From the NCBI GenBank assembly GCA_963580455.1, contig OY756962.1, positions 19,362,001-19,426,000 on the forward strand: a DNA stretch of 64,000 nucleotides. Reading direction: 5' to 3'. This DNA is from Euonymus europaeus (taxonomy: Eukaryota; Streptophyta; Magnoliopsida; Celastrales; Celastraceae). Below the pieces are notes generated by a model. That model ran no database searches. It was not told the DNA's origin and worked only from the letters and a program-made list of their open reading frames with translations. Below are positions 5,000 to 57,342 of this stretch, piece after piece. How positions within the stretch are numbered: the first letter of the stretch is position 1; each line of letters opens with the position of its first letter. The translations under genes were made by a program, and so were the position numbers.

Positions 5000-5218
5000 G
5001 TTTGGTATCGGAGGTGGTCAGTTAGTTTTTGGGTGGGTATTCGGTTTATTTTGTTTTTCCCCAGCTACACATCACGCGCTTCCCGGCTGATCTGGTGAGT
5101 TATTTTTTGTTTTACGTTTGGGGTATTTGATGTATGTAGTTATACGATTACGTTTCAGTTATAGTAGACACACGTTTCAGCATTTTTGGAGGATGATGCT
5201 TATGTCTGGTAGGAGAGT
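5000..5218 (+). other. Leader plus residue of gag N-terminus
   Basis: Only about 220 bp separate the LTR from the open gag frame, while Tekay-type gag normally has over a hundred residues ahead of the segment that starts at 5219. A short stretch at about 5181-5218 reads HFWRMM, resembling the conserved WWR-type gag motif, but in a different frame (frame 3) from the downstream ORF (frame 2), and an in-frame TAG at 5210 blocks extension. I read this as an internal deletion of the gag N-terminus followed by a frame change. Confidence 0.55.
5003..5013 (+). other. Primer binding site (initiator tRNA-Met type)
   Basis: TGGTATCGGAG lies three bases after the 5' LTR end. Plant elements primed by initiator methionine tRNA usually show TGGTATCAGAGC at this position, so this is a one-mismatch version over its length. 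Its location directly behind the LTR supports the assignment. Confidence 0.85.
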
Positions 5219-9435: not shown

Positions 9436-9522
9436 GTATTTTTCGTATTTTATACTAATTATGTTACCTTTGAGTACTTAATAATTACCCTTTAGGTAAT
9501 TTCGAGGACGAAATTGTTTTCT

Positions 9523-9535
9523 AAGGGGGGGAGGA
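9523..9535 (+). other. Polypurine tract
   Basis: AAGGGGGGGAGGA directly abuts the TGTAATATCC start of the 3' LTR, as expected for the plus-strand primer of reverse transcription. Confidence 0.9.
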
Positions 9536-11808
9536 TGTAATATCCCGAACCCAAAATTTTAAAAAAATATAATAATTTTTCAAATTTAATATTTTTAATA
9601 AATACTACATATTTTTAGAAAAATATTGACGCAAGAATCAGCTAAATCGGAGTTGAATTGGATTTGTTATGGATTATAGAAGCTTAAGTAAATATACGGA
9701 AAGACGAGGGGCAAAACCGTCATTTTTCAGAAATCTGGTTTAAACCAGATTTCTCTGGTTTCAGTAGCAGCCGAGAGAGAGAGAGAAGGGGAGAGAGAGA
9801 GAGAGAAGGGGGTTTTGTTCGTTTGACGTCCGATCGGAGCAAGTAAGGTGTCAAATCGAAGCTCGTGGTGAGAGGAGCAAAACCCAAGTGGAATCACCGC
9901 CATCGGATCACCGTAGACGGCGGAATCGGCCGGAGAAGTTTCGGTTTTTCGAAATTTCAAAGCTCGATCCCGGTCGATTCAGTAGGAATTTTGGAACGAG
10001 ACAGGTACCATTAGATTTCTGTTGTTGTGGGCTTCGTTTTGATGTAGGAGTGACTGGAAAATTCGCCGGAAAAATGGATTCCGGCGACCGGCCGGCCGAG
10101 TTAACTCAGCTCCGGCGAGTTGACTCGTGTTTGACCGAGTTGACCCGTTGACTCGGGTTTGACCCGTTTTGACTGGGTTGACCCGGTTTGACCGTGGACT
10201 ATTTTACCCGAGTTGACTTTGACCGCGTTTGACTTTTGACCCGAGTTGACTTTGACCGTTGACTTTTAGGTTGACTTTTGGTTGACTTTTACGTATTTTG
10301 ACTGTCGTGTATACGTATCCGTATTTTGATGCAGGAGGTTGATTTGGAGTTTTCAGACGTGTTACGGATTATCTTAGTCGACATTCCAGGTAGGGATTCT
10401 GCCCTAGTTCTTATTTGGGGTTCCGGGGGTTCCGTATTCGACGGACTCCTATTTGTCTGTTGGTGTGAAATTCCCGGAGGTTGGGAATTTCTCTGTTTAT
10501 ACTCTTATCTGATTTATTCCCGCAATTGCAATATGTTATGATTATATGTGGTTGTTTTGGAGGTATATGTACGACTGACAGTATTTTTGTGTCTCTTGCG
10601 GGCCCACTATCCTGGTGGGGCCCACTTATCTTCCTGTGGGGCCCACTATCCTGGTGGGGCCCGCCTATCCTCTCATGGGGCCCACTATCCTGGTGGGGCC
10701 ACTTATCCTTTTGTGGGCGCATATCCATTGGTGGGGCCCACCTCCTGATGTCTGGTTTTATCCTCGAGAGTCCGGATAGGATTCCATTATGATGATCTTC
10801 TATGATTTGTGAGATTATGGAGGGATGATTTGTAGAGCGTGGGACCCACATCGGGCAACCCAGCTTACTGGATGATTTATCGATGGTTTTGATCGGGTAC
10901 GTACCTGGAGACCGGATTGAGGTGAGGTACATCCTAGGGGACGCTCTTCGATGTAGGCGATGCTATCGAGTACCTGATGTAGGCTCGATCCTCATCCAAT
11001 CTGGGGAGTACCTGGACTGGGAGACACCTTGCGGGGATCAGGGTGGGTCCAGGGGAGGATTTTCTGTTGTTATGTGGATATGAGTTGATACGGATTTGTG
11101 TTGATACGGATTTGAGTTGATATGGATTTGAGTTGGATTATGATTGAGTACTGATTTGAGAGTTGTACTTGAGGATGGTAGTGGTGGAGCCTACTCGGTA
11201 TCTACCCTACGGATTGACTGATTGTGATGAGTTGTGATGTGTATCACTTATGGTTTCTCTGTATGTATTCTATATCTTACAGGCTTTCTTACTTTATCTC
11301 TGATTTACTGGAGTTCGGTGATACGGGAGTGTATCACTATTTGAGTTTCCTGTTCATTTCACATACATCTTGAGCTTTTACTTTCCGTTTATTCTGTTAA
11401 TTGATATTCCTCTATATCCCTACTGAGCTTCGTGGCTCATCCCTTTCATTCATATGTTTTCAGGTGAGATAGCCGGAGTGGATGATCAGCGCAGGGATGT
11501 GTGAGGCGTGATGTAGCTGGTGTGGGGATGTTGTGTCTGTCTTTAGTATCTGTTTTTTCGTATTTATGATATTTGGATTTTTCCGCTGTAGACTCTGGAT
11601 TGCAGATTACATTATGTTTGGAGTATTTGAGATTATGGTTGAGATTTATATATATATACATATATATATATATATGTGAGATTACTTATGCAGTGTTTGG
11701 GTAGTTTGGGGTGTAAATCCGGTTCGGGGAACGGAGGAGTTCCCTGCCGGTCACGTCTCTAGGATTCATGGGTGCTCATCTGCACCTATCTGGGAAAGGG
11801 GCGTGACA
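9536..11808 (+). repeat. 3' LTR of the Tekay-type element
   Basis: This copy is collinear with the 5' LTR at an offset of +6809 over its whole length, with four base differences and a compensating dinucleotide change in the GA repeats. The W-box array (10120-10303) and the TCP palindromes (10615-10849) are unchanged. It is followed by GTTTGGTA, eight bases identical to those that follow the 5' LTR, before the sequence becomes unrelated. Confidence 0.95.
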
Positions 11809-12200
11809 GTTTGGTAAAGCTGAGGAGATAGTATGCGTTGTTTTTTGGAAACAATAATATTTTCAAAGACAAACTCAAATGAAGGGAATGAAGAATTCAG
11901 GATCAAACCAAAAAAATGAGAGAAAATTTCCCAATTATGAGGGCACATAGACGAATTGTTCCATTAACGTAACGAGAAAGACTTGGCACAAATTTTTCTA
12001 ACAAAGTCCAATTGATGGTGACGTGAATTGCTTGGCAATAATGACTCATGAGCCTTATGTCGAGAAAAGAAACGACAATATCCAATAGAAATTTTGAAAA
12101 AGAAATTGCATGGATAAAGAAAAATGGAGACATGATCTTAACATTGACGACACTATCACTGATTTGATTGAAAATGTCGATCATGGAAAGGGAACATTGA
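11809..12200 (-). pseudogene. Probable N-terminal side of the interrupted Transposase_32-like relic
   Basis: If the Tekay element inserted into the 1598-2726 relic, its upstream part must start here on the minus strand. The minus strand does remain open without recognisable motifs from about 12184 to 11810 (for example SKKQR followed by LSPQLY adjacent to the LTR). No conserved block of the family is visible, so the assignment rests mainly on position. Confidence 0.3.
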
Positions 12201-39855: not shown

Positions 39856-42072
39856 TGTGACGCCCCGGTCCGGGCACGCCACGGGTGCCCTCCGGCACCG
39901 TCCTAGGCCACTAGTGCGATCATCCGGCAGACCGGAAATCCGGCGGCATCTCCCCGTATGTCGAAGAGTACCCGCCTGCATCAGAAATTTGCAGCGTAAA
40001 TTCAATCCATCACACTAGTAACCTAGCTAGGCCTCAGGCCTCAAACACATGCAATCATGATCCTAGGGCCTCAAGCCATCCACTACCAGCATGCACAAAC
40101 TGATAGTAATAATCACAACATCAAGTTCATAATATCATATAACCAAAAATCCATACTCAGCATACATCATGCATACACCCTCTGGTGCCAATCGGTTATA
40201 ACAACATTATGAACAAACGTCAATACATCGTAACAAAATACGTGCTAGAGTACATCTCTAACACCCACATCCTACCCAGGGCCATCCATGTCACATCTCG
40301 CTCTCATCGATCCGCTCCACCGGTACCTGTACCAGTATCTCCTGTGGGAAGGAATAGAAAGTAGAGAGTGAGCAAGAAGCTCAGTAGGGTTAAGAGTATA
40401 AAACGTATAAAGGCCGAATCCGAACAATAGGTTATGCAACAATATAAAATCTACCACATGCACGTATACTCAACAATCACATAGAACATCAATCCGGGCA
40501 ATCCCCTCAATGAGCAAACCTCATCGATACCATGGCTAGTTCCATGTAATATCGAACATGAGCAAGCTCACCACATCAACTCATCAATATCATGGCCAGC
40601 TATCCATGTAATATTGAATAGGAGCAAGCTCCCCAACATCAAACGCTCTTGGATTACCCGGTTGCGAGAACCTATTACGCCCGCACCATTTCCAGGCAAG
40701 GTCCCTCATTAACCATACCTCTAGTGCATTATCCTACATGGAGTTCACATGACTTGGTGGTAACTCTCATCACCTCGTCATCCCTCCAAGTAGCTTTCAA
40801 GAAACCTAAGGAGCCCCGAGTCCATACCCGGTCCCCAATGCAACGCTAATGCATTTATGCCATGTCATGCCAAAAAGATATATATACATGAACATCCTAC
40901 ATATATATATACATAACTACCATGATGCATTAACGAAAATCACATTGTGTCCATAGGTGATGGAACACACACAATCGGGTCATGCAACATCAAGAATTAA
41001 CAATATTCCACAAGCAAGGTTCATTTCCCCTTAGAAGCAATTAAGGCAGAAACACAAATGGAATGACCAATGAGGAATCGAAACGCTCTTTAAAATATTG
41101 AGAACAACGATAGAGAGAATTGTTGGAAATCCTCTACCTCGTATCGAGCAATGCACCAAAATCCCACAATTAGGGTTTTAAACCCCGTTTCTCCAACCTA
41201 ACAATACCACACAATCGAACTCTAATAATCATCCAAAATAACTCAACATATCATAACCAATATAAATTAAACAACTAAATTGAGGAAACTTACTTTCTCT
41301 CTCTCTAGGTTTCCTCTCAAACCCCCAAACCTCAACCTTATGAAACTCAAATCCAAAACGAGAATCAAACCTACATATACAACCACATATGACCTAGAAT
41401 CAACATATCTAAACCATAGGAATCAACTCTAAACAAAACTAACAAGATCTACTCGAAACCCTAGAAATGAAATAATGAGAAATCTTACCTCAAAAGCTTG
41501 AATCTTCCTTGAATCCTCTCTAAATCTCCAAACCAAGCTTCAATCTCCAAGAATCACATCAAATGCCTTTCTCTCTCTAGAATCTTCTCTCTCTCTCTCT
41601 AAAGTCTTGGGCTACCCAGAATAAATGTAGAACAACCCTGCGTTTCAACATTTTGAAACACGGGTTGCGCCTAGGCGCTATGGCCTAACCAACATTTCCC
41701 AGGCGCGCTGCTCTGAGCCCCATCCTGGGCGTGTAGGGTTTTCACGCCCAGGCGAGGTGCACCTAGGCGGCCGCCTACTTCGATTCCTATCTCTCACTAG
41801 ACTAGGCGCAGCGCTTAGGCGCCCTGAAGTGCGCCCGGTCCAGTTTGAATTGCTCCTTCCTGCACGCCCATCTGGTGCTTGTTAGACTGGGTGCGGCGCC
41901 TAAACGCCGCGAGGTGCGCCCAGTCCAGTTTCTCTTCTTCTGGTCTCCCTCTTTGCTTCCCACTCACTGGACTGGGCGCAACGCCTAGGCGCCCCCTGGT
42001 GCGCCTAGTCCAGTTTTCCCCCCTTTGCTCAAACATCAAAATTTCACAACATTTTTGGTTCGGGGTTTCACA
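39856..42072 (-). mobile_element. Solo LTR in the hAT element (TSD TTTAT)
   Basis: A 2217-bp insertion starts TGTGACGCCCCGGTCC and ends CGGGGTTTCACA, with identical TTTAT at 39851-39855 and 42073-42077. It is related to the LTRs at 21477-23079, from which the minus orientation is inferred. It contains a GC-rich block of inverted repeats at 41797-42013 and CT microsatellites at about 41570-41600. No internal sequence is left. Confidence 0.96.
41797..42013. repeat. GC-rich hairpin array in the LTR
   Basis: Three units at 41797-41843, 41882-41928 and 41966-42013, about 84 bp apart, can each fold on themselves. In the third, CTGGACTGGGCGCA pairs with TGCGCCTAGTCCAG with one mismatch, enclosing a second small palindrome GCCTAGGCGCC. 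The other two have three or four mismatches, some tolerable as G-U pairs. A weaker related stretch precedes at 41665-41765. Confidence 0.75.
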
Positions 42073-43134
42073 TTTATTATTTATTATTCCATTAATCCAT
42101 TTATCTTACCAGATTCCACAAGATCAAAACAGGAAAATTATGATGATGATTCTGAGACGGAGGTAATATCACTTTTGTGATTCATTTGTTACAGTGTTTA
42201 GTGGAAAGTTGCCTAGTTTTGCTTGGCAATCTGTTAAACAAATGAACTAATCTAAAATCTATTACATTTTTTTGCCTTTTCCCCTTATTGCTACTCTGAT
42301 TGGTAAGGCACTTGCAGCTCATATGTTATGTTTGGTTGCTAAGAAAATAAAAGTAATTGGATGGAAGTCATGATTCTTTGAATTGTAAGATTCTTTTATC
42401 TTAGTTGCAGAGTATGAAGCTTTGATTTCAAATTTGCGTATTTTTTTGTTTGCTTCCTCTGTCAACCTGGGCAACTGAACTAAGAATCAGGGATTTTGAC
42501 TGAAAAATAAAAATTAGTCCTTAATTATTTCTTTGTATCCGCTTTTCACTTCTCTTTGTTATCGTGAATTTTCCCCCTTGTAGAATCACCTTACTTAGCA
42601 TTCCAAAAGTTCTATATATATATTTGTGAGGATGTCTTTCTTTGTCTGTTTTATGTCGTAGTGCCTAATAATTTTCATGGCCAAAGTTTCCCCAATGTTC
42701 TTTTAATTTGGGTTTAAATCTATTACATTTTTTTTGTCGGAAGTGATTTCTTGTCTTAATTATAGATTAGTACAGTTTTAATTGTTTATTATAGTACCCT
42801 CCTATTTATTTCACTATATTCAAGTTGTAGCAATCGGAGTCTTGCGCCACCAACATCAAAATTGAGGCTACTAATACATGATATCATATTCGGGTCTCAA
42901 TATTGTATTGTAATACTCTGATTTGGAATTTGGTTATGGAACTTGTTAAGTATTGGTTGTTGTTTAATATGTAATTTGGACTTGCTTGTTGTTTATGTTT
43001 AATATGTAATTTGGACTTGTTAGTATTATGTACTGATTGAGAGATGATTTTGATGTAATTTGGAACTGTTAGACTGTTATTATCATGTATTGATAACTGA
43101 TTGTGTAGTTTTTTTTATTTTTGGATGTTGATGA
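42073..43134. repeat. 3' non-coding part of the hAT element
   Basis: No coding sequence is visible between the solo LTR and the GC-rich end. Short duplications of TTTAATATGTAATTTGGACTTG occur at about 42962 and 42998. Nothing else is notable. Confidence 0.5.
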
Positions 43135-43208
43135 CGTCGGGTTTAGGGATGGGGGTGGGGATGGGGATGGGAAACCCACCCCGCCCCATTGCCAACCCTA
43201 AACTCAAC

Positions 43209-44370
43209 TAATAATTAGTAGATACACAATCAACCACCACATTTTTAGTCACAAAATCCAAAAATCACATTTGTGGCCACACAAATCAACTACGACATCA
43301 ATTATTATTAATGTCAAATACTAAATGAATTAATAAAATATTATTAATATTAATATCATTTGATTATTATTTAACATGGTAAGATTTGATGTTATAAAAG
43401 TAGTAAAATAGATTGAGTTTAATTCAATAAAGAATGATTATAAAAGTGAATATTTAAATAATTTAGAGTAACTAATATGTGTTGTTACTATTTTAAAATT
43501 TGTAAGTTGAGCAAAAGATGTACTTTTGCTGAAATATAGAAAATCTCTCGTTACTATGTGAGTTCTTGGTAGGACATTAGTTTTAATAGTGAATAAGCTA
43601 TAAAGTGTATAAGCTGTCAAATAAGTTGTGTGGTGTTTGGTAGAGCTTAAGTTTATGATCATGTATTAGTTGTCAATTTATTACTAGAGATATTTAAAGT
43701 AGTTTAATAATGAAATAAAAAGTATTAAATATGTGTTTTGTTGGAAAGAGATTTACGTGTTAAGTTCGAATATGTATTTTTTCGAAATCTAACACATATT
43801 TTGAAAGACAATAGAACAAATGTGTGAGAGAGACAGGGACAATAAGGCAAATTGAGAGAATTTTTTGGTGTACATGTTTATTTGAGTAGGTAGAGCGTAT
43901 AAGCTCTTTAGTGAAGAAAATAAGCGTATAAACTATCACACGCTATACCAAACGGACCCTATAAAAACCGAGTGTTACCCTATTAGAAACCGGTAATACT
44001 ACATATACATAAACTGTTCACTCTATAATATCCATAACAGACGTGGCATGCTGACTGTACTGATGACAAAGCAATTTCAAATACCTGCAAAATGTAATTC
44101 AAAAATTGTAAATTCAAAAACGGTGATACACATTTACACGCCATTTGGACACATACCCCAATGAAGATTTAACCACGGTTACATTGAGTTAAAAACATAC
44201 CTCCCGTTTGATAGCTCACCTGAGAAACACATATTTTTAGAATTTCTCTCTAATCACCCAGGTCGAAACTCCATTGTTTCCGGCGAGAGCATCCACTGTG
44301 ATAACAAAAACTGCGTTTGAACGCCATTTCCCGTCAATAATAGAAGCTAATATTGCTCAAAGCTGTCAAA
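43209..44370. repeat. AT-rich DNA upstream of the Ulp1-like gene
   Basis: No gene is visible. Around 43630-43965 there are MITE-like phrases (GTGTTTGGTAGAGC and, at the right, ATACCAAACGGACCC) that could be ends of a degenerate small element, but I could not pair them into clear inverted repeats. The last 300 bp probably hold the promoter and 5' untranslated exon of the Ulp1-like gene, since a good splice donor (CAAAG followed by GTAATAAC) lies at 44371. Confidence 0.4.
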
Positions 44371-44574
44371 GGTAATAACTTTTACACATTTATTTGGTTG
44401 TTAAATAATTTAAATGGGTATGGGTTTTGCAACAGAGGTCGATTTCGTTGGTTTACCGTTTTCTTATTATGTTTACATTTATTACAGTTCCATGGCAAAC
44501 ATCAAGATATTGATGTTAATTTTTTTAATTTTTTTTAGGGAATTTAATGGGCAAACTAATTGTTTTGGAAATTT

Positions 44575-44960
44575 ACGGAGTATCTTACATTGACACTGTG
44601 ATGAAGTGGATGTTGTTCACAGGAATGTGAATAGTGTATTTGGTTCATGAAATACATTGTTGTATTGCTTTAAGTATTAAAAATACTGTTTTTGTTACTG
44701 AAGTACAGTGTCGATTATGAAGTTGTGGTATTTAAGCTGTGAAGTTATTGTCTTAGTAAATTTATGTAGACAGAGTATCTTACATTTAGACTGTGATGAA
44801 CTGGTACTTGTTGATAGTTGTGTAAAACTGTTTTTATAATTGAAATACATTGTTGTGGAGGGAAATTGTCGTCATTGTTTTGTTGGTCACCAAACACCTT
44901 ATTAGTGTAATGGAAAAGTGTAATTAAAGTCATTGTAAATATGCAATTGTATAGGCTGAT
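44575..44960 (+). repeat. Imperfect tandem doublet in the putative 5' UTR intron
   Basis: Two units of about 190 bp begin GAGTATCTTACATT with an ACTGTGATGAA block (about 44577 and 44773) and end near AATACATTGTTGT. It lies in the presumed 5' untranslated intron (44371-45146) of the Ulp1-like gene. Confidence 0.6.
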
Positions 44961-45137
44961 GGAGTAACATATTTATGAGTATCTAACTTGTGGTTTTTGG
45001 ATTTTGTACTTGAATAAAATGGAATTTTATGCATTGCCATCACAGAATAAGCTGGTTTCTTATGTTCTTTTATGAAAATGCCTTGTTAATGATCACTCTC
45101 TATGCTAGTTGTGTCATTAGTGTTTTAATTTATTTAA

Positions 45138-48100
45138 ATGCATCAGATGAGTAAGGGCAGTACATCTCGGTCAGGGCGTAGTCCAAAGAAATCTGTCACG
45201 GCAAGCCGATCACGACGTACCCAAAAAAAATCTTTCAAAAGAAAGGCAACTCCATCAAAGAATCCAGAGAAGCCTCGCAAAGAAATGCAGTTCAAATCTA
45301 ATCTTTGCGCTTTAAAAACAATGGTAGACAGCCTTGATTTGAACGAGCAGCAAGAGAGAGCCATCCAAAAAACACCTTTCTACTACCTGTGGTCAACCTT
45401 GAAACAGAAAGAGAACAGAACATTGAAGACAAAGAAGAATGAAAATTTCATATGCGATATCATCCGTACCTACGATGATAGATATAGTAGCTTTGCTATC
45501 GGGACAAATAAGGTGAATCTTGATGAAACAGATATTGCGTTGATATTTGGTGTGGAGTTTGGTGAGGTTCGTATGAAAATTGGAAGGAACTCGAAGCCTT
45601 CAGACAATGCTTTTGTCAATAGGCATTTTGGCAGCAATGTAACTCACATGAAAGCGAAGATCATCAAAACAGCCATCCATAAAGCTTTTATGGGGGAAGG
45701 GGAGGACGATGCAGCTAATTTGGCACGGCTGTTGATGCTATATACATGCTTGACCCTATTTTTCAGCACACGAGCAGACCAAATTCCATGGGCCTTCATA
45801 GACTACGTCTATGACATTGAAGCTGTAAAAAGATACAATTGGCCGAAAGCTATTTGTGATCATCTAATGGAATCGATAAAAAAGAATCACAATGAGCCGA
45901 GAAAAGTCATTGGATGCGTAACTATGTTATCGGTATGCACTTTAGTTCTTTACACGCATTTATAAATTGCAAATATAACTTCAACTAATACAATTATTTT
46001 TCCATGTTACAGTATTGGTTTTGTGAGCACTGCAACATATTTTCACCGGTTAATGAAGGGAAATTTCCTAGATTCTTAAAGTGGGACATCAGTGGTTGGC
46101 CAACTAACTTCAAGGCTATATACATTGACAACTTCAAAGGCAGTAAGGTAAAAACATTTGACATAAATGAACGCAATATGTTTTTAACATGTTTTATGAA
46201 TGGCTCAATGGCATTGATGTATGTAATACATTGACATAATAAATGGTTTTTATTACAGTGCATATGCTTTTTTACAGGTAATATGGTTGTGTGCGTGACA
46301 TTGGTGTTTTGAATACATTTATTTGTTTGAATTTTTTTTATCGCATTCCATATGTTGGCTGACATGCCTTAGGGTTTCATCCAGGAAATTGTTGGGTTTA
46401 ATACTCGGGCTTTTTACATTATATATGTATTCCATTGCATATGTCACAGAATAATTGAAAACGATATTGAATATTGTAAAAACATTGATAATGTAAATTT
46501 GCTAATACATATACTGTAATTATATAAATTTTCTTTATAACAACTTCAACTTTTTATTAAGGGCATTCTCTGTGACAGGCATGTTGTTTAATAAAAAATG
46601 AGATATGTTAACCGCTCACTTTGTCATGTCCGCCTGATAATTATTTGCAGGCTTCGGGGTTGATTAAAGGCTTGTTGAAGATGACCAAGGATGAATGCAG
46701 TGTACTAAATTTTCAGCATCGAAAATCAATTGCCCACTGCAAGCAGCCAAACCCAAACATTAATCGTGATGATAGTCGTCATGTAAATACAGAATCGCCA
46801 AGTCCACGTCGGCGTTTGGAAACTTTATTTGATGAAGTTATCACTCCACATAAAGATACCAATGAATCCCATCATAAAACATTAGAGAGAGCCAACAGTC
46901 CTCTAGCTCATTTGCATCTACAGGAGGAGTCATCTGGGTCAGTACTCGATGCATTAAAGAGAATAGAAGTGCTGGAGAAGGAGAAACAAGCAGTTGATCA
47001 TGAAATTGAACAATTACAAATCGAGATTGCAGTACAGACTAAAGAGAAACAAAAATACGAAGTAGATTTGAAGGACCTGAGGTACGAATTGTCATGTAGA
47101 AATGAGGAAATTGATGACCTCAAAAAGAAGCTGCATGAAGTTAATGGTGATTATGAAAAAGCTGTGAAGGATAAAGAAGAATTGAAGATGGAATTGGATA
47201 AATTGAAAGCAGAGACTGATGATATCATTGCATTGTTTCAGACAAACACAAAAGTGTTGCCTGTAATTGATGTCCCTCCTTTGCAAGTTCGAGAACCAGA
47301 TATGGATAAGTATAAAGGAGAAAGCGTACAGCAGTCGAACCAATTGACTGAAGATGCATTACGTACTGTACAAGAAAAACAGACGTACAAGAGGAAGACT
47401 GTGACACCTTCTATGATCAGAAGAATTAAAACGAAACCACGTGTGGCAAAGGTTGACTCAGATTTTGAGTATATCGATATCAAAAGACAGAAAGCTCATC
47501 ATAAAGGTAAAGCTCCAATCTTTGAATCTGAATTTGAAGTCTGCAATGTGGAAGAACACCAAATTGTGGAACACAGAGCAAAAGCAATTTCTATGGAAAA
47601 GAGATCAGCAGTTTACAAATACCTGACACCAGATGTGAAGGCAAAACTGCTGGAAATTGAGAGACAAAACAGCAATGAGTAAGTCCTCATTAATTATTGA
47701 AATCTTTTTACATTGTCTCAAAACTTGAAGGACTATGAGAGTGTATTTATTTTTATGTTTTTATCTACTGTAATTAAATACATAAGTAATGTGCATATCA
47801 ATGAATGTACAGCGTAATGGTTTGGCTTGGGAATGACTACTTAACCTGGAAGGATATGGTGACATTGGTTAACTGTGACATGATCTCCACCAATGTGAGT
47901 GCATATTCAGCATGCATTTATTAATTGACTTAGATTTTACATTATCGATCTATAATTTTTAATATTGATGCTCTTGCAGCTTATTAATGCATATGCTGAG
48001 CACCTCACTGAGATGCAAGACAATGTTAGTGAAGACATCACCCAGTGCACCCAGAGTGCAAAATCTTTTGTCATCAACAGTATGGCAATGTCATTCCTAA

Positions 48101-48784
48101 CAATGGACAGGCCAGATTTGGTGAAAAAGAACTTGACTGACAAGATACGTCAAAATGCCCTTAAATACAGGTATACACTATTCCCCCTCCTATGTGCAGG
48201 TAATCACCGTACTCCAAACCATTGCACCATGTTAGTCATTGACATCGAGGAGGAGCAATGGCTGCTCTACAATTCAATATTGCCCAGAAGCAAAAAATCA
48301 AAGGATCCTTATCTCAAAGATGCTGAATTAATGGTAACCATCGTCAAACCATAAAATAAAATTATACCTATGATATTGCGTAATTATAAATGAAGTACAC
48401 ATGACCAATTTGTTGTTATAGGTCAAATACTACGAAAGCATTTTCGAGACTAAGGATCTCTCTCAAAGCAGAAGCACAACATTGGCGACAGTGTGGGACA
48501 CACCACAACAAATGCATGCATCGTAAGGATCAAAATAAATAACTTCATTACATATTCAATTTAAATAATAGTGTAAATTTTATCAAAATTATTGCACAAA
48601 CTGTAACTTTGCTAATATATACAGGGTGGACTGTGGCATAATATGCATGTACATCATGAACGCTATTTTCAATCACAAGCCAATACCCAAAAAGCTCACT
48701 CAAGTTGAACTTCACAAGTACCGGGCTGCTGTAATTGAGACTTTCTTGAATGACCAGAAACATGGATGGGCTGTGAAGCGTTGA
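45138..48784 (+). CDS. Ulp1/C48-like cysteine protease with coiled coil (MULE-associated), intact
   Basis: Seven exons give 884 codons without a stop: 45138-45932, 46013-46147, 46651-47678, 47813-47894, 47980-48333, 48422-48522 and 48625-48784. Every intron has GT...AG ends and the exon phases add up. Residues 1-50 are Lys/Arg/Ser-rich; residues 60-310 form the helical domain found ahead of Ulp1 domains in plant transposon proteases (WPKAICDHL, YWFCEHCN); about residues 405-510 are a strong Glu/Lys-rich coiled coil; the C-terminus is a Ulp1-type peptidase with NHCTMLVIDI (H761), LYNS (N778 where Asp is usual), PQQM (Q827/828) and VDCG (C835). Such enzymes cleave SUMO or ubiquitin-like tails. 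A CAG just before the second ATG (45147) looks like a splice acceptor, so the start may be three codons later. It converges with the FAR1 gene. Pairing with a transposase suggests MULE cargo. Confidence 0.9.
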
Positions 48785-49934
48785 TATAGTGTTGTTATGA
48801 CAATACTCTTCATAGTATTTTGTAATGTAGAACACCTAATATATTAAGGTAATAGCTCTACCATGATATGTAGATGACAGTGGTTGTACGGTTATAAAAT
48901 TATGACTGACTTACACTAATGTCTTTTTATACATTGGTTAATATCGCATCCTTTATTTAAAAATTATATTTTCATATGGTCACAAAGTGGTCTAAATTGT
49001 CTGTCATATTGGTTATTACATTGTATTGTCAGAAAATCACAATTCCGGAAACAATAGTTCGATGAAGTATTAATGTGAAAAGATAATGTAAAATTGTTGG
49101 ACATAACTTACATTAACAAATGAAGGTATTACTAAAGTGTAAATATATCATTTAATTAGGAGTGTTTATTAGACTGTCTTTTATGACATGGTTAAATGCA
49201 CTGACACTGTGAAATTGTGAAAAATAAATGTAATTGCAATAATTCCCTAACGTCCGCTCAGCTAGGCTAATAAGCTAATATTCGATTGTAATTGATCTTC
49301 TATTACGCTTAATATAGGACTTAATAACTCTTTAAGCAACAAACACACTATTAAGTGGTGACACTAGAATTAAGCCCCTATCATGTAAGTGTTTATTACA
49401 TTGTGTTTTACGACATTACAAATGCAATAACACTATCTCACGGTTAACAATTGAAATTAACAATTGATGCAAAAATTCTCTAACATAAACTCAGTTGGTA
49501 TAATAAGCTCATTTTAGACTGTAATTAATATTCTATTATGATAAATAATAGGACATAACATAACAATCATAGATAGAAACACTATTACGTTGCCACCCCA
49601 TAATTAAAGCCACTGAATCTCAATGGATATTACACTGACACACATCGACATAAATATAACCATTGATATACACATCACACAAAAACATTCACCAATTATT
49701 TGATAAAAAACATTGACAACATGATTTCACGAAAAACATTACCTAAATTACAACTTCAATCATTCTTAAAATACTGAGCATGTTGTCCATAGAGTGATTA
49801 CAAACATAAAATAATCATTTATCTCTCACTAAGAAACAAGTGCACGAATTACCATCCAAACTCCAAACTAATTAAACTAAATATTTAAATTAAACATAAC
49901 AACTTATAAAGTGTACATGCATATTAGTACTTAG
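48785..49934. repeat. Region between convergent genes with tandem doublet
   Basis: No gene is visible. It should hold the 3' ends of both convergent transcripts. An imperfect tandem duplication of about 240 bp spans roughly 49150-49385 and 49386-49625; paired landmarks are GTGTTTATTA, AATTCCCTAAC/AATTCTCTAAC, AATAAGCT and ATTAAGCC/ATTAAAGCC. Confidence 0.6.
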
Positions 49935-52285
49935 TCATGTGATCTCAACATCCTCGTTTCTCTGCGCTGCTACACCAGTTGTGCTACTGCTGCCCCGGCG
50001 GCGCTTTCTTCCCCATATCCTCTTCTTAATCACACTAAGCGGACGACCCTTACCTCTTTTAGGTATTGGGTTATTGGAATTGGAGGTCACTTGTACCGAA
50101 GGACTAACTGCACCACCAGACAACTGTTTGGCATAATCATCAATCCATTTCATCACGCCCATATAGTGAACCTCACTTTCAGCAATTGCATCCGCAAAAC
50201 TATTAAATGATTTTACCATATCATTATATCGTTTGTGTTCAATAGTGGTTGACCAACTAGAATAATTCACCTTCACCCGTGAATGACATCTTTTCACATC
50301 CTTCCTCCATCGTCTACAAACATATATCAACGGCAGTGTGTACTCATCATTCGCTATAAGAACAGTGAGAGCATGTCGGCACAAAATGCCCCTGAACTCA
50401 AAACCCAAACAAGTACAACTCACCTCCAACCCATCGTACAATACCTGAAACATTACTTTCTTTCTCCCAGCTTCTCCAAACACCACATCTTCATTCACAT
50501 AGTATCGCACATGGTAGGGTAGCTTCTCAGTTGATTTAATTCCACAATACATCATCCCAATCAACTCCTTTTGGAACTCAAGGAACTTGTTAGCCGTATA
50601 AAACTTTCGAACCTGAGACTCCATTTCATAAATTGTAGAACAAGAAATTTGCTTGTTAATCGATTCAAAATCAGCCAAGTTCTCTTTCTCAATCTTCTTC
50701 CGTAAGGCATTCTTATACTGTTCTACAAACTGTTTTAACGTAGTCTTAGAATTCACATACCCATCGAAAAATGCATTCATACTTTCACTACGACCAGTTG
50801 TCGACATCCCTGCCCAAAAATGTATTTTAACAAAAATTGAAACCCACATCTCCTTCTTCAAATACAATTGACAAAGCCAAACATTCCCCTCCAATGAATG
50901 AAGATACATCAACATCCTCCAAGTTTCTGATAAATTTAAAAATAACATTGAACTGATATAAGAAAAATATAATTACATTGAACAATTGAAAATAAAAACA
51001 TATAACGATAAGAATAATGTTATAAATTTCACAATGAGAAAATTAAATTCATTTTAAAAAAAACATGATATGTAAACATACCTACAATGTAATAACCTTG
51101 AACTTATATAAGCAAAAATAATTACATTTAATAATTGGTAATAACATGCAATGTAAAAATAACAACAATGTAATTACCTTCAAAATCATCAATGCTTTGG
51201 GAATCATACACGGCTGCGCCAGGCAACTGGGTAATAGCTTCATAATCTCTGTGAGAGCCTAACTTCTCTGGTACTTTCTTCATGATATGCCACAAACACC
51301 ATCTGTGCCTAGTGTTTGGAAATACGATATCAATGGCATTCTTCATTGCCAAGTCTTGATCAGTAATAATACCCAGCGGGGGTACACCACCCATGCAAGC
51401 CAACCAAGTACTAAATAACCAAACAAAAGTCCTGGTATCTTCATTGGAAATTAGACCACAACCAAGTAGAATCGAATGACCATGATGATTTACACCCACA
51501 AAAGGCGCAAATGGCATGTCATATTTGTTCGTCAAATACGTCGTATCAAATGTAATAACATCACCGAATTCTTGATACGCTGCCCTGCTATGCGGATCAG
51601 CCCAAAATACATTCCTCAACCGCCCCTCGTCATCCCAATCAATAAGTGAGAAAAACCCATCATTGTTAGATTGCATTCTCAAGAAATAACTTTGCATCGC
51701 ATCTGCATCCCCAAGACCAAGACGAATTCCTCTAGCTCTAGCAATGAGATTCCGACTATCCCTCTCTAAAAATGGTAAATCCTCATGTCCACCAGCTTCA
51801 ATCACAAATGAATTGTGACTTTTATTTGGCCTAATACCTGCAATGTCATTAATCTCCAATTGCCTCTTCACATGCGGACTTATCTCTCTATTGCATCTAA
51901 AGAACCTCGATTGGCTCGGACTCAAATTGTGATTATGTTCATCATCAAACATTGTAATCTCCCATTTACCCTCGGCTGATAGACGGGCAGCCAATCTAGC
52001 CTTGCAATCATTTTTAGAAGAAGCACGATGGTTTACCAAAATCTTTGACCGACTTTGAAATTTATCGGACCTCCCACAACTAAAAGTCAGGTATCTATGA
52101 ATCCCATTGACATCCTTAGTTATAGACCTCTTCTTCACAGAAAATCCATTTGCATTCCCATATTCTTTGTAAAAATTAAACATATCATCGACAGAATCAA
52201 ACATCATGCCCGGAGTCGGAGCATTTGATCCAACTGGCTCAACAACATCATACACATTGTCACCTGGTTCAATCAGATTGAGCAT
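49935..52285 (-). CDS. FAR1/FHY3-type MULE transposase, intact
   Basis: Two minus-strand exons, 52285-51178 and 50926-49935, join through a GT...AG intron into 699 codons without a stop. Residues about 28-125 form the FAR1 DNA-binding domain (TFSCG, KNDCKARL, EHNHNL zinc ligands). The MULE transposase core carries a plausible DDE set: D247 in FDTTY, D309 in ITDQD and E417 in RSES, with the CLWH motif between them. A SWIM zinc finger follows near residue 535 (CTCLGFEF then CRH), then a basic C-terminus with a KRGKGRP AT-hook-like motif. The start ATG at 52285 lies just after a good splice acceptor (TTTTTATGTGCAG), implying a 5' untranslated exon. The length is within the range of FAR1-related proteins. 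It could be an active MULE transposase or a domesticated transcription factor; complete DDE residues beside a Ulp1 gene favour the transposon view. Confidence 0.9.
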
Positions 52286-53060
52286 TGTCCCACTGCACAT
52301 AAAAATTGTAACTACAAAATCAACATAATACAAACCTGACATAATGCATAGTTATAGAAATTAATGCTAAATCTCAATCATATACCCTCACAAAAATCAA
52401 AAACAAAAATCTTGACATATTACAATATTAATAAGCCATAAAAAAATCTCAATCTAAACACATTAAATGTAGTAGTACAGGGGAAAAAACAAAAAATACA
52501 TTCGCAATGTAATAAATGCATATTCATTACATTAACACAATGTGAAAAAAACTGAGGAAAAAAACCCAATCCAACTAAAAGTACAAAAAACACTATGCAC
52601 TGTGTAGCTTAAAAACAGAAAATCAATCCAAAAACGCCAATCCAGAAACTGAGTATCTAGATCTAGTATAAAACCCATAAAAAAACCACAAAACACAATG
52701 CAATAATGTCTTCACACATAGGATTAACATAAATACATAATTTAACTGAACACATTTATCTCACATTAAACTAAGAAACAATCCCAATGTAATAAATGCA
52801 TCTTCATTAGATTAACACAATGTAAAAAAACCTGAGAAAAAAAACACAATCCAGCTAAAAGTATAAAAATCACTATGCACGGTGAAGTTTTAAATACACA
52901 AAATCAATCCAAAAACACCAATCCAAAAACTGAGTAGCTCGATCTAGCCTATAAAAAAACTCCATGACGAACTACATTTGAGATTAAAATAACAAAAATA
53001 CCAACTAAACACTAACCAGTAAGAGATCTACAACAATGACGACCTAAAATAGGACAAGAC
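52286..53060. repeat. FAR1 5' region with tandem doublet
   Basis: Two imperfect units of about 285 bp start near 52508 and 52790: both contain AATAAATGCAT, TTCATTA, AACACAATGT, CACTATGCAC and AATCAATCCAAAAAC blocks. It lies in the presumed 5' untranslated intron of the FAR1-type gene. No coding sequence is seen. Confidence 0.65.
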
Positions 53061-53929
53061 AATGCAAAAAAAATTGGAGATGCAATACCTTAAAGAAGAA
53101 GCTGAACACGACTTCCCTTCAGATTCTTCCATTATTCTTCAATCAAAAATCAAGCAACATATTATAATGGCCAATGTTTCAGGAAAAATGTCGCCAAAAC
53201 TCACTTCTTCCAAGCAGTCTAGTTCGATAACCCCAAATCTAACCCTGGTAAACCGTACAAATCAGACAGGATGAGAGAGAAGCGGGAAGTGCATTATTCT
53301 AGGCGGGATGATGGTCAACACCTCGGGACCCTACCCATTAAAGAAATTGTAATAGCATTAGTGGCATGCTGATGTGTCTTGCCAGCTAGATTATGTATCT
53401 TATGTAATAAACAGTTTAGGGATACAAATCATTTTCGATTAGAAACTGATTGCAGAATAAGAGGGGTGGTACTAGGAAATGTCCCCTCTTTATTTCCACT
53501 TCCACCCAATCATCCTCACAATTCAATCCCCCCCCATGACTTCACGCTAGGTGCGTCTAAATTCAGTCAACTTTTTGCTATATATAGAACTACGAGTAGG
53601 CTGATTCTTCAAAGGCCAAAGTTGATATCCACGTCAGTAACATGTAGGGATAATCATTTTTAATTTAACAGTTACTTGAGATAAAAAAGCAACTTCAAAA
53701 TTCAAAAGTGGCACAATGTGTCCCATTGAAAGAAACTCATGCCTAACCATATTAATTAATTGAATTCAGACAATCAATATTAATAATTAATTTTCAACTT
53801 AAAATAAAAACATTCTCAAGGTGGCATATTATTTATATATTTATTATTTTCAATCAAGTCATATTGTTGAGGAATAGCAGTACCCACGTGTCCACAAAGT
53901 CAAGAAAGTATCCAATTACAGGAAAGCTG
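53061..53929. repeat. FAR1 promoter side and unassigned DNA
   Basis: The stretch 53070-53280 probably contains the first untranslated exon of the FAR1-type gene on the minus strand (an AAG followed by GTATTGCATC gives a possible donor near 53088). Beyond that I see no gene. GTGGCATGCTGA at 53361-53372 recurs at 44043-44054 in the same orientation. Confidence 0.35.
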
Positions 53930-53939
53930 AGTCTCTCGT

Positions 53940-54960
53940 TAATTTTAAGTCTTTTATTTCTGACAAAAATAAAAGTAGTAAACTTTAAGTTTTGTTATTA
54001 TTGATAAAAGTAAAAAGAGACAAGTATAAAAAATGCCCCTGAAGTTTCGATTTTGGGTCATTTTGGCCCCTCAACCTTTTTTCAGGCCAAAAGAACTCTT
54101 CAACTTTCAAATACGGGCACGTTTTAGGTGAAACCCATATCAGTTTTAGGTGACAAAAGACGATGAAAGTTCTGGGTTCTTGGAAGTAACCGTGAGGAGA
54201 ATATTAGATATGGGTTTCACTGCTAGGTAAGATTGGATCGAATTTGGGTTTCATTAACTTGATTAATCGATTTGTTTCAGGTGAAGGACTGGTGACGTGA
54301 GGCGTGGGACGGTTAGACCAAACAGATGCAAGTGTCACCGGAGAAGATGGAGTTTCACCAGAGAATACAGAGATTTAAGCTTTTTTTTACTTTTTTTATT
54401 ATGTGTTTTAATCCATGTCACGTTTGGCACTAAAAAAAATAATTAAAAAAATTATACATCAGCACTTAATGGACATGTCAGCTATTTTTGACGGAATTTA
54501 GTCAAAAGGGCTAACATGGCTCGTATTTGAAAGTTGAGTAATTCTTTTGGCCTGAAAAATAGTTGAGGGGCCAAAATGACCCAAAATCGAAACTTCAGGG
54601 GTATTTTCGATACTTATCCCAATTAAAAATAATAAACTTTATGTTATTTTCTCTCGTATTTGATGCTTATTTTGGTACTGACAAAAGTAAAAGTAATAAA
54701 TTTTAAGTCTTGTTATTGCTGACAAAAGTAAAAGTAGTAAACTTTAAGTCTTATTATTACTGACGAAAGTAAAAGTAATAAACTTTATTCTTTTTATTAC
54801 TAATAAATTTATGTCTTGTTATTACAGATAAAAGTAAAAGTAATAAACATTATGTCTTGTTATTATTGATGAAAGTAAAAGTAATAAACTTCATGCCATT
54901 TTCTCTCATAGTTGATGCTTATTTTGGTACGGACAAAAGTAAAAGTAGCAAGCTCATAAT
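53940..54960. repeat. Short tandem array upstream of MULE copy B
   Basis: Units of about 45-50 bp read (C/G)TGACAAAAGTAAAAGTA followed by ATAAACTTTAAGTCTTGTTATT, with at least seven degenerate copies. A longer repeat (ATTTTCTCTC then TTGATGCTTATTTTGGTAC) occurs at about 54648 and 54899. The MITE at 54017-54620 splits the array. Confidence 0.8.
54017..54620. mobile_element. MULE-type MITE with about 100-bp TIRs
   Basis: A 604-bp element with long terminal inverted repeats: the left end (ATGCCCCTGAAGTTTCGATT and GGGTCATTTTGGCCCCTCAA) is mirrored at the right end over about 100 bp with few mismatches. Flanking 9-bp sequences AAGTAAAAA (54008-54016) and AATTAAAAA (54621-54629) differ at one base and fit a Mutator-type target duplication. 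It has no coding capacity. Confidence 0.88.
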
Positions 54961-55136
54961 TTATTTGTTATACTTTACATTTTAAAAAAATATTTAAAAA
55001 AGTATCATAACCCAAATGAAGATGAGGGTTTTTTTTTAACTATAAAAGGAAGTGAGGTTTTCCATAATAGATCAAAACTAGAAAATCCTGATCGTCCCTT
55101 GATCGTTTTTAGCTTCTCTCTTCTCTCTTATAAATT

Positions 55137-56993
55137 ATGGATGAATATTTTAAGTTTTGGGATGAAGATTTATGTTTGTTAAGCCATTCACTGGAGGTAA
55201 AAATGCTACTTTTGAGAAGCATGTGTGATTATAAGTTTTTTCTAATGTTATTATTGTAAACTAATTCGGTTATTTAATGTACAGCAGGATGATCAACACA
55301 GATCGATAAAAGTAGAATCAGACAATTATCAAGTAGAAACAGATTATACAAAATAGTTTACAACTAATTTGGTATAATAATTAAAGAGATATTTTATTTT
55401 ATAATATTTTAAATTTGAAATAATATTAATATATTTTTTATTGGATATTTCATTGTCGTGAATATTTAATCAAATGGACACAAGATATAGAACGAGCACT
55501 GAGATTTATTATGATTATTGTCAGTTCAAATGAATGTCAATTTGGACAGAAGCCTAAACTGACACTGCAATGTGAGCGAAGTAGACAATATCGATCATTA
55601 AAAAGTTCATCCAAATCAACTGATACTAAAAAATGCAACTGTCCATTTCTTTTAAAAGATATGAAGTTAAAAATCGAAGATGCTTGGAGTCTGAGGGTTA
55701 TGTGTGGGATCCATAATCATCCTGCCGCAAGTTATATGGAAGGTCATGCATATGCTGGTAGATTATCACAGGATGAAACTAACATAATGATTGATTTGTC
55801 ATAAAACTTAGTAAAGCCACATGAAATATTATCTACATTGAAGGATAGAGACCCATATAATGTGACAACATTAAAGATGATTTTATAATACTCGCCAAAA
55901 ACATCGAGTTGCTAAAATGACAGAGAGAAATCAAATCCAACAATTAATGTATCTACTAAGTCAGCATGATTACGTTTCGAGGTATAAGAGTGACAATGAG
56001 TCAAACCAGATCCAAGAATTATTTTTTGTTCTTTTCACATGGGCGTTAAGTTGTCTGAAGGCTACTAGGGATTGGTGTTTATCACCAAGGGTGGTGTTGA
56101 TTGACAGAGATTTAGCATTAATGAATGTTATTGATCATGTCTTCCCATAGTCAACTGCTTTATTGTGCAAATGACATATTTGAAGGAATTTAGCAGTGAA
56201 TTATAAGAAACTATTTGAAGACAAAAATACCTAGTATAGTTTCAATTCCATGTGGCATTATCTAGAGAACTCTGAAATTATTGAAGATTATTTCATAAGG
56301 TTGTCATTTATCGAACGATTATTTCACAGGTATCTATCAAAAAAAAATTCATTTATCATTTTAGTTGATTTTTCATTAAAATGCATTAATTTATCTATCA
56401 AACACTTATTCCATAGGTATCCAAGAGCAATAAATTATATCAAATCGGTGTGTCTCGATAAATATAAGGAGAAATTTGTTACTACTTGGACTAATAAATC
56501 GATGCATTTCGATAATAGAACTACAAATCGAGCTGAAAGTCAACATGCAAAACTGAAAAAATATTTACCAAATTCAATGGAGAATCTTGTGTCCATCTAG
56601 TCACAGGTTTACAGTCTTTTGGAGGTATAATTCACTTCTATCAAAGCATCACTTGAAAACAGTGTTAATTTTGTGCAACATGATTTCAGAACTTCAATAT
56701 TCAACAAATTAAGAGGTTCTGCTTCAACTGCTACGTTATATTATATTTTGGCAGAGGTGAAACGTTCTAATAACGTTGTCCATGATCCTGACTTATGTGG
56801 TTGTGAAACCAAATTATCTCACGACTTACCTTGCACACATGAGATCTCTAAGTACAAGATGGAAGTCCGTCCAATTCCACTATTTTCAATTGATCGATTC
56901 TGGAGAAAGCTAGACTTCAAGTCCATCACTACATTGGAGGACGATGATATAAATTGTAGTGTTGAGATTGATTTATTCACGAAATTTTTTTAA
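55137..56993 (+). pseudogene. FAR1/MULE transposase relic of copy B
   Basis: Collinear with copy A: a short first exon from 55137 (MDEYFKFWDEDLCLLSH) followed by an intron, the FAR1-like block at 55511-55804 (CGIHNHPAA, GRLSQDE), a MULE core remnant at 56030-56150 (FTWALSCLKAT, VLIDRDLALMN with the second catalytic Asp present), the YPRAINYIKS block at 56250-56600 and a SWIM zinc finger at 56800-56860 (CGCET then PCTH). TAA at 55801, a deletion in the core that removes the first catalytic Asp region, and further frame breaks make it non-functional. It ends without the OTU domain. Confidence 0.85.
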
Positions 56994-57342
56994 AAGCAGT
57001 CAAGACCTGGTAAATTTCAATTGTTACAGAAATTACATGAAATTATCAATCCCTCATCTACTTTTTGATTCTGATTAGTTTTTTTGGTGATTTAGTTCAT
57101 TTGATTTAGTTGAGAATGTTTGAGATTGCATCCTTGTAACATTTGTTTTCCTTTTAGTTGATTTTTTTTTTAAAATATTTCTATTGTGGTTTCCTTGAGT
57201 TTTTCGAATAATCACCTACATACATGGATAAATAATCATTTGTTTAATGGATCCCACATATTATAAAAATATATTCTACAATACTTTAAAATATTTTATC
57301 GATTAGTAAATTTTATAATATATTTTTTTAAACTATAACTAC

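What the first reader, a model, noticed from the sequence alone, without database searches (positions are those of the whole stretch)
45138..52285. Intact convergent Ulp1-like protease and FAR1-type MULE transposase
Seen: two multi-exon genes, 884 and 699 codons, with agreeing splice phases and no stops, lie tail to tail in a window where every other transposon gene is broken. Known: some plant Mutator-like elements (the Kaonashi type in Arabidopsis) carry Ulp1-like genes. Inference: this is either an autonomous MULE that brings its own SUMO/ubiquitin-like protease, or a pair kept by selection after domestication. The convergent layout and the coiled-coil insertion in the protease make it worth describing.
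Basis: partly seen in the sequence, partly recalled or inferred. Interest (0 to 1): 0.82.

Follow-up and report, generated by a model that had tools for sequence, protein, structure and literature searches.

The report
Two-gene jumping element with protease gene
This is an intact plant jumping gene that carries, besides its own transposase, a second protease-like gene and a dense array of one short DNA word, and it may use that second gene to escape the plant's silencing; the kind is known, but this version of it looks new and testable.

Summary
The two convergent genes (884 and 699 codons, clean introns) lie inside one 9,447-bp Mutator-like element, 43991-53437, between perfect 9-bp target duplications (ATTAGAAAC) and degenerate terminal repeats. 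A 98% copy on C11 has its own perfect 9-bp duplication. The transposase is FAR1/Jittery-type; the other protein has weak DUF1985/plant-mobile-domain similarity, a coiled coil and a C48 (Ulp1-like) domain with His-Asn-Cys. Of 45 listed first-exon relatives of the protease gene, 31 have a listed transposase partner, 30 of them convergent. Against distant families dN/dS is about 0.07-0.09 (transposase) and 0.16-0.17 (protease). This fits a mobile two-gene element, not domestication. New here: the word CAATGTAA is packed into the noncoding DNA of four elements from three families (73 in 19.6 kb, against 2 in 18.5 kb of their exons and 4 in 79.7 kb of control DNA) and is multiplied by tandem repeats, as VANC motifs are in Arabidopsis VANDALs; some relatives lack this enrichment. 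Best reading: the protease gene is a VANC/KIU-like anti-silencing factor. Binding and demethylation are untested; the transposase may instead read the word. Ulp1-carrying Jittery-like MULEs are already known.

The parts
43991..53437 (.). whole element, 9,447 bp
   Evidence: alignments to copies on C11, C8, C3, C1 and C4 stop at or within a few bases of these ends; 9-bp target duplications outside
43982..43990 (+). left target-site duplication ATTAGAAAC
   Evidence: identical to 53438-53446
53438..53446 (+). right target-site duplication ATTAGAAAC
   Evidence: identical to 43982-43990
43991..44048 (+). left degenerate terminal inverted repeat
   Evidence: 45 nt of it (44004-44048) 71% complementary to the right end (pair I1)
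53380..53437 (-). right degenerate terminal inverted repeat
   Evidence: 53380-53424, pair I1; outermost bases read
45138..48784 (+). gene 1: DUF1985/PMD-like N-terminus, coiled coil, C48 (Ulp1-like) C-terminus, 7 exons, 884 codons; H761, N778, Q827/Q828, C835
   Evidence: same 7-exon structure in family C copy C8e
49935..52285 (-). gene 2: FAR1/Jittery-type MULE transposase, 2 exons, 699 codons; presumed DDE residues D247, D309, E417, SWIM finger
   Evidence: spacing 62 and 108 against 62 and 110 for JITA D337/D399/E509 (PMC9569675, passage)
44179..44592 (-). two TTACATTG words upstream of gene 1 (44179, 44585)
47708..47715 (-). TTACATTG word in an intron of gene 1
49016..49403 (-). two TTACATTG words between the two stop codons (49016, 49396)
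50973..51173 (.). four words in the 251-nt transposase intron (50973 -, 51085 +, 51149 +, 51166 +)
52487..52960 (+). one full and one partial tandem unit of about 281 nt upstream of the transposase, each with CAATGTAA at the same place (52505, 52785; one extra at 52818); the C3 copy has six unit matches, five with the word

Best explanation
SHOWN: an autonomous-looking Mutator-like element of the FAR1/Jittery kind, 9,447 bp, with 9-bp target duplications, encoding a transposase and, convergently, a DUF1985/PMD-like-coiled coil-C48 protein. Both genes have been kept together under purifying selection across diverged families, and the group includes a multicopy subfamily. SHOWN: its noncoding DNA, and that of relatives from two other families, holds an array of the word CAATGTAA/TTACATTG. 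INFERRED: gene 1 works like the VANC/KIU proteins of Arabidopsis VANDAL elements. Its N-terminal/coiled-coil part would bind the word array in introns, 5' regions and the spacer, and recruit or perform an activity that removes silencing marks from the element; the C48 domain might cut SUMO-like modifiers from silencing proteins bound there. That would let the transposase gene be expressed and the element move. Tandem duplication of word-bearing units raises the number of docking sites.
For: Ends and target duplications (C3b TTTAGCTAT on both sides, read). Convergent pairing at 30 of 31 paired loci. dN/dS window-C3b 0.07 transposase and 0.17 gene 1, with C48 core 0.08 and N-terminus 0.13. Word counts 12, 26, 25, 10 in noncoding DNA of window, C3b, C6B, C8e against 1, 0, 0, 1 in their exons; first of 840 anagram 8-mers in each (C3b and C6B are one family). 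Control DNA 4 in 79,657 nt. Top 8-mer de novo in window, C11a, C8 and in C3b, C14B, C6B, C8d; coding dS between window and C3b/C6B is 1.0 or more. One word per tandem unit at the same place: two units in window, C11a and C8, five word-bearing units in C3. Same compartments as VANC21 motifs: introns, upstream of the transposase, tandem repeats (PMC5735166 section 9). VANC proteins carry DUF1985 and some VANDAL VANC genes carry Ulp1 (PMC13317346 passage). Weak DUF1985 and PMD matches in this protein.
Against: No binding, methylation or expression data. DUF1985 and PMD matches are below Pfam cut-offs, and the C8e protein shows no Pfam match at all, C48 included. Unlike VANC motifs, which differ between families, this word is shared by A, B and C, which would also suit a conserved transposase DNA-binding domain. 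Enrichment is not universal: in C3 and C1b it is the second word, in C4 and C8e the third, and C1a (2 in 8,086 nt) and C7 (4 in 4,328 nt) do not show it among their top six (outer limits of C1a, C4 and C7 were guessed). Simple-repeat words in other pieces of the window reach log10P -13, the best other words -7.3, against -9.4 here. In the listed part of the genome most clusters of the word are not beside listed relatives. The catalytic Asp is Asn, so protease activity is open. Structure models were too weak to identify the N-terminal fold.
Confidence: 0.5

Rival explanations
1. The word array is read by the FAR1-type transposase (or serves as subterminal/internal transposase sites, as in other cut-and-paste elements), and gene 1 is a protease with another job.
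For: The transposase's FAR1 region is 81-86% identical between families, more stable than gene 1, as the shared word would suggest. One of 7 listed FAR1-transposase loci on C1 and the listed part of C2, a locus without a listed gene-1 partner, has word pairs 2.4 kb away. Transposon-protein-driven hypomethylation is reported for MURA and TnpA (PMC10398659 section 12).
Against: Words are not concentrated at the ends: the nearest lie 188 bp (left) and about 610 bp (right) from the tips of the window element, while introns and the central spacer hold them. The outermost 58 bp at either end lack the exact word.
Confidence: 0.25
2. Gene 1 is a general SUMO-type protease that helps transposition by modifying the transposase or host silencing factors, without sequence-specific DNA targeting; the word array serves something else.
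For: His, Gln and Cys of the C48 active site are kept in window, C3b, C6B, C8e and Tripterygium; C48 core dN/dS 0.05-0.24 in the five of six pairs that gave a value, several with saturated dS.
Against: The N-terminal domain is also constrained (0.10-0.13 against the window), so the protein is more than a protease. The triad has Asn for Asp. A diffuse protease would not explain a word array in the element.
Confidence: 0.17
3. The word array is an RNA-level or expression signal (splicing, 5' leader) or a by-product of sequence composition and tandem duplication.
For: In families A and B the word is mostly TTACATTG on the sense strand of each gene half (9:1, 18:2, 22:1), as an RNA signal would be; tandem duplication multiplies it.
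Against: Composition alone is unlikely: the word ranks first of 840 anagrams in four elements. The family C copy shows no strand bias (5:4). The spacer between the genes also holds it.
Confidence: 0.12
4. The pair is a domesticated host locus kept by selection.
For: Both genes are intact here while the nearest copies are broken.
Against: Multicopy, target duplications, 98% copies at other sites, 11 family-C pairs with the same span and gene-1 first-exon score. Nearest-copy dN/dS 0.33-0.86.
Confidence: 0.02

Closest known systems
Ulp1-carrying Jittery-like MULEs of grapevine and melon (Benjak et al. 2008, PMC2528002, passages seen; van Leeuwen et al. 2007, known only from citations)
   Same: Jittery-like transposase with a Ulp1-like coding sequence downstream; both orientations are reported for ULP in grapevine MULEs as a whole; Jittery-like families said to be expressed
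   Different: those passages treat ULP as captured sequence; the conserved convergent pairing across families, the DUF1985/PMD-like N-terminus, the Asn triad and the word array were not in the passages seen
KI-MULEs / KIU genes (Arabidopsis Kaonashi; Hoen et al. 2006 and Sasaki et al. 2022, seen only through the review PMC13317346, passages)
   Same: reverse orientation of ULP to the transposase; weak or no terminal repeats; element-specific motifs reported for KIU elements in the review; DUF1985-like before C48
   Different: KIU elements have a MuDR/VANDAL transposase; DUF1985 and C48 genes above Pfam cut-offs are abundant in this same genome and the four readable loci keep H...D
VANDAL21 / VANC21 anti-silencing system (PMC5735166, sections 4 and 9 and passages; PMC10398659, abstract, sections 4 and 12)
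   Same: short motif arrays in introns and upstream regions, multiplied by tandem repeats; partner protein with a DUF1985 domain; degenerate terminal repeats
   Different: VANC21 motif is YAGTATTAY, here CAATGTAA; VANC motifs turn over between families, here the word is shared; no Ulp1 domain is mentioned for VANC21 in what I saw; function not tested here
Domesticated FHY3/FAR1 (FRS) genes
   Same: FAR1, MULE and SWIM domains
   Different: FRS genes are single loci without target duplications (as described in PMC2528002); this one is part of a mobile multicopy element

Membership tests
Mutator-like element (MULE superfamily) | MULE transposase domain with DDE residues | tested here: met
   Pfam MULE E 1.2e-35; D247, D309, E417 located by motif
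Mutator-like element (MULE superfamily) | 9-bp target-site duplication | tested here: met
   perfect at window (ATTAGAAAC) and C11a (TTTTTGACA), 8 of 9 at C1b; perfect at C3b (TTTAGCTAT), 7 of 9 at C6B, none at C14B (read)
Mutator-like element (MULE superfamily) | terminal inverted repeats | tested here: inconclusive
   45 nt, 71% complementary; degenerate
Jittery/FAR1-type MULE | FAR1 DNA-binding domain and SWIM finger flanking the MULE core | tested here: met
   FAR1 1.2e-15, SWIM 3.9e-9
Jittery/FAR1-type MULE | placement with Jittery in a transposase tree | not tested
   no tree was built
KI-MULE / KIU (VANC with Ulp1) | DUF1985 domain at the curated cut-off | tested here: not met
   18.0 and 18.4 bits against a cut-off of 35.1
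KI-MULE / KIU (VANC with Ulp1) | C48 domain at the curated cut-off | tested here: inconclusive
   19.1 against 20.7 in the window; 29.4 in Tripterygium P0001, 20.5 in C6B, none in C8e
KI-MULE / KIU (VANC with Ulp1) | MuDR/VANDAL-type transposase partner | tested here: not met
   partner has FAR1, MULE and SWIM domains
VANC-type anti-silencing system | short motif arrays in element noncoding DNA, multiplied by tandem repeats | tested here: met
   not in every relative (C1a, C7)
VANC-type anti-silencing system | motif differs between related families | tested here: not met
   same top word in window and family B, third in C8e
VANC-type anti-silencing system | protein binds the motif and removes DNA methylation | not testable with these tools
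   needs protein and bisulfite data
Active C48 (Ulp1) protease | His-Asp-Cys triad with helper Gln (recalled) | tested here: inconclusive
   H761, N778 (not Asp), Q827/828, C835; Asn also in C3b, C6B, C8e and Tripterygium
Domesticated FRS gene | no mobility, single locus, no target duplication | tested here: not met

The most novel reading that the evidence does not exclude
FAR1/Jittery-type MULEs carry their own sequence-specific anti-silencing system, a VANC/KIU-like protein with a His-Asn-Cys C48 domain plus a dense, conserved CAATGTAA docking array. Such systems would then not be confined to VANDAL elements and could be recognised from DNA alone by one over-represented word in noncoding DNA.
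Probability: 0.4. Interest if true: 0.72.

Novelty: new variant of a known kind. Interest (0 to 1): 0.5.

Why it matters
How plant transposons escape silencing is known in molecular detail for few cases, VANDALs among them. This element offers a second lineage, with another type of transposase, in which the candidate factor and its candidate target word can be read from sequence and tested with standard binding and methylation assays. It also bears on the open question of what the Ulp1 domain does in such proteins, because here the catalytic Asp is Asn in each intact relative read. Eleven pairs of one subfamily with equal span, ten of them with equal scores for both genes, suggest recent activity in this genome.

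Tried and rejected
Domestication of the pair: rejected (multicopy, target duplications, broken near copies). Capture of an RdDM factor: a Tripterygium protein joins this N-terminal domain to an XH (FDM1-like) domain. In the present genome 13 XH matches were found; none is within 15 kb of a listed gene-1 or transposase place (the closest, C12:21749692, is about 17 kb from a 60% transposase), so this was dropped; the Tripterygium case may be a merged gene model. Fold recognition: N-terminal model mean pLDDT 60.6 and no PDB match at E <= 0.001; the Tripterygium model has mean pLDDT 47.1 and is poor except for a long helix. PDB sequence search with the C48 part of C8e: none at E <= 10. Canonical DUF1985-C48 elements as users of the same word: 0 of 12 DUF1985 and 0 of 13 C48 listed loci on C1 and the listed part of C2 have a word pair within 8 kb. 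Papers with 'plant mobile domain', 'C48' and 'transposable element' together: 0.
Full report
WHAT IS THERE. Both genes are real as described. Gene 1 (+) has seven exons from 45138 to 48784 and 884 codons; gene 2 (-) has two exons from 52285 to 49935 and 699 codons; the introns are GT-AG and the phases agree. Gene 2 carries FAR1, MULE and SWIM domains and the presumed DDE residues D247, D309 and E417. Gene 1 shows PMD (E 2.1e-5), C48 (0.0012) and DUF1985 (0.003) matches, all below Pfam's curated cut-offs, plus a coiled-coil stretch; a Tripterygium relative passes the cut-off for C48, the C6B relative just misses it, and C8e has no Pfam match. Of the 8 members of alignment A2 (first-exon domain and named proteins), 4 match DUF1985 and 3 PMD at E <= 0.1.

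IT IS ONE ELEMENT. Aligning 40000-57000 to copies elsewhere gave matches that stop near the same two points: C11a 98% over 43992-53440, C8 98% from 43987 (right end cut at 53389), C1b 43991-53441, C4 from 43987, C3 to 53437. With ends at 43991 and 53437 the flanking 9 bp are identical (ATTAGAAAC). The C11 copy, at another site, has its own perfect 9-bp duplication (TTTTTGACA), and C1b has 8 of 9. In a second family C3b has TTTAGCTAT on both sides, C6B 7 of 9 and C14B none (read from the flanks printed). Terminal repeats are degenerate: 45 nt, 71% complementary.

THE TWO GENES TRAVEL TOGETHER. Searches of the own genome with each protein gave 96 transposase rows and 111 gene-1 rows (lower bounds, since only 64 of 2,069 and 51 of 1,402 candidates were scored). 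By hand I took 62 transposase places (one row each) and the 45 gene-1 rows that hold the first exon; two gene-1 places without a first exon row (C3:23642734, C5:20566171) were left out. Of the 45, 31 have a listed transposase within 12 kb in the expected direction; 30 of these 31 are convergent and one (C14:11451684) is on the same strand. Of the 14 without a listed partner, C1a, C1b and C16:16924979 do have transposase DNA beside them. Of the 62 transposase places 31 have no partner among the 45: 22 of these are 58-67% identical, and 9 are 74% or more, of which C3:23638232 and C5:20561610 belong to the two left-out gene-1 places. Eleven family-C pairs have the same span, 6,701 bp, and the same gene-1 first-exon score; ten of them also have equal transposase scores without stops. 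Equal scores are not proof of identity. I read one of the eleven, C8:3130000-3139999, which is the one that scores slightly differently: both genes are open over the aligned range, with seven and two exons.

SELECTION. Nei-Gojobori, rough where dS exceeds 1. Window against family B copy C3b: transposase dN/dS 0.07 (dS 1.12), gene 1 0.17 (dS 1.58), with N-terminus 0.13, middle 0.26 and C48 core 0.08. Against C6B: 0.08 and 0.16. Against C8e: transposase 0.09 (dS 1.54), gene 1 saturated except N-terminus (0.13, dS 2.46). Within family B, C3b against C6B: 0.15 and 0.28. Nearest copies: C11a 0.60 (gene 1) and 0.56 (transposase), C8 0.33 and 0.86, C3 0.51 and 0.37. C11a has stops in both genes; C8 has a roughly 1.2-kb insertion in gene 1 and a stop in the transposase; C3 lacks exons 1-2 and part of exon 3 of gene 1, with stops, but its transposase is open. 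This is the pattern of a transposon: selection along the active lineage, decay afterwards. Of the seven other family-A copies compared (C11a, C8, C3, C1a, C1b, C4, C7) none has both genes intact.

THE PROTEASE SITE. Window H761, N778, Q827/828, C835. Asn replaces the usual Asp in the window, C3b, C6B, C8e and Tripterygium P0001. In C48 loci of the same genome the stretch reads H...YDSL or H...FDSL in the four of eight loci where it could be read (L004, L006, L007, L008). That the usual triad is His-Asp-Cys, and that some viral clan-CE proteases use Asn, is recalled, not looked up.

THE WORD ARRAY. The most enriched 8-mer in the element's noncoding DNA is CAATGTAA (12 seen, 0.93 expected from a second-order model). 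The same word is first in C11a and C8, second in C3 and C1b, third in C4, and not in the top six of C1a (2 in 8,086 nt) and C7 (4 in 4,328 nt); the outer limits of C1a, C4 and C7 were guessed. In family B it is first in C3b (26), C14B (25), C6B (24) and C8d (14), and in C8e third (8); with the rough exon limits of that call the exons hold 0, 0, 2, 0 and 2. In one search, with spliced models, window, C3b, C6B and C8e hold 12, 26, 25 and 10 in 4,692, 5,240, 5,086 and 4,610 nt of noncoding DNA, and 1, 0, 0 and 1 in 4,755, 4,539, 4,542 and 4,707 nt of exons; in each of the four it ranks first among 840 anagrams. C3b and C6B belong to one family and are not independent; C14B and C8d were left out because their genes are broken. 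Control DNA, made of flanks and the rest of the window, holds 4 in 79,657 nt. In 11 other 4.7-kb pieces of the window the top word was a simple repeat in six (log10P to -13.0) and another word in five (best -7.3), against -9.4 for the element. Orientation is biased in A and B (TTACATTG on each gene's sense strand 9:1, 18:2, 22:1) but not in C8e (5:4). Upstream of the transposase a unit of about 281 nt, with one word at a fixed place, matches twice in window, C11a and C8; in C3 there are six matches, five with the word; in C1b only fragments and one word. Genome-wide, two words 8-38 nt apart occur 1,048 times against 176 for the reversed pattern, so other repeats use the word too. In the listed part (C1 and C2 to 16.78 Mb) word pairs lie within 8 kb of 0 of 12 listed DUF1985 loci, 0 of 13 C48 loci and 1 of 7 FAR1-transposase loci, and beside 1 of 6 gene-1 loci, C1:10119473, with pairs 1.1 and 8.3 kb away.

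COMPARISON WITH WHAT IS KNOWN. Benjak et al. (PMC2528002, passages) report ULP sequences downstream of the transposase in MuDR-like and some Jittery-like MULEs of grapevine, both orientations among grapevine MULEs, and cite Jittery-like cases in melon. VANC proteins of VANDALs have DUF1985 (PMC5735166, legend passage); VANC21 binds YAGTATTAY in noncoding regions, and the repeats lie in introns of VANC21 and VANB21 and upstream of VANA21 (section 9). A review (PMC13317346, passages) says that some VANC genes carry Ulp1 (KIU) and act on motifs in their own group, function of Ulp1 unknown. The MULE survey (PMC6446971, passages) gives one ORF for the dicot/monocot Jittery subgroup. PMC10398659 was seen in abstract and sections 4 and 12; PMC8616336 and PMC9569675 in passages. 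The likeness to VANC is in layout and word array; membership in KIU fails on transposase type and DUF1985 cut-off. In my searches (listings, plus what is named above) I saw no paper joining Jittery-type MULEs with anti-silencing. Sasaki et al. 2022 and Fu et al. 2013 were looked up and are not held; Hoen et al. 2006 and van Leeuwen et al. 2007 were not looked up. Priority therefore cannot be claimed.

VERDICT. A genuine, well-delimited two-gene transposon of a known kind, with a conserved word array that gives a concrete and testable anti-silencing hypothesis. The closest named relatives of both proteins come from Tripterygium wilfordii, and P0001 (gene 1) and P0006 (transposase) there are reported on a contig of the same length, 13,229,198 bases; the host itself is unnamed.

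Noticed in passing
window 2727-11816: Ty3/gypsy-like LTR retrotransposon: two 2.28-kb LTRs 99.7% identical (2727-5007, 9536-11816) around a gag-pol split over two overlapping ORFs (5213-7225, 7168-9435), so a recent insertion whose reading frame is split.
   Followed up: partly
protein P0002 (Tripterygium wilfordii): A predicted protein joins the same DUF1985/PMD-like N-terminal domain to an XH domain of the FDM1 RdDM-factor family (E 1.5e-52): either a merged gene model or a capture of a silencing factor by such an element.
   Followed up: partly
   Followed up: no
L031/L032 (C8 copy), exon 1 of gene 1: A roughly 1.19-kb insertion, with an overlap of about 14 nt between the two aligned pieces that may be a target duplication, interrupts the protease gene of the 98% C8 copy.
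   Followed up: no
L045/L046 (C3b), 1696-2285 and 6810-7360 of the joined reverse strand: In family B the 5' region of gene 1 and the spacer between the genes are inverted copies of each other, about 75% alike.
   Followed up: no
G000 genome-wide: At least 150 DUF1985 matches and 150 C48 matches (both lists capped); several pairs lie about 3 kb apart by eye, e.g. C14:3133139 and C14:3129727, so canonical KIU-type genes look very abundant in this genome.
   Followed up: partly
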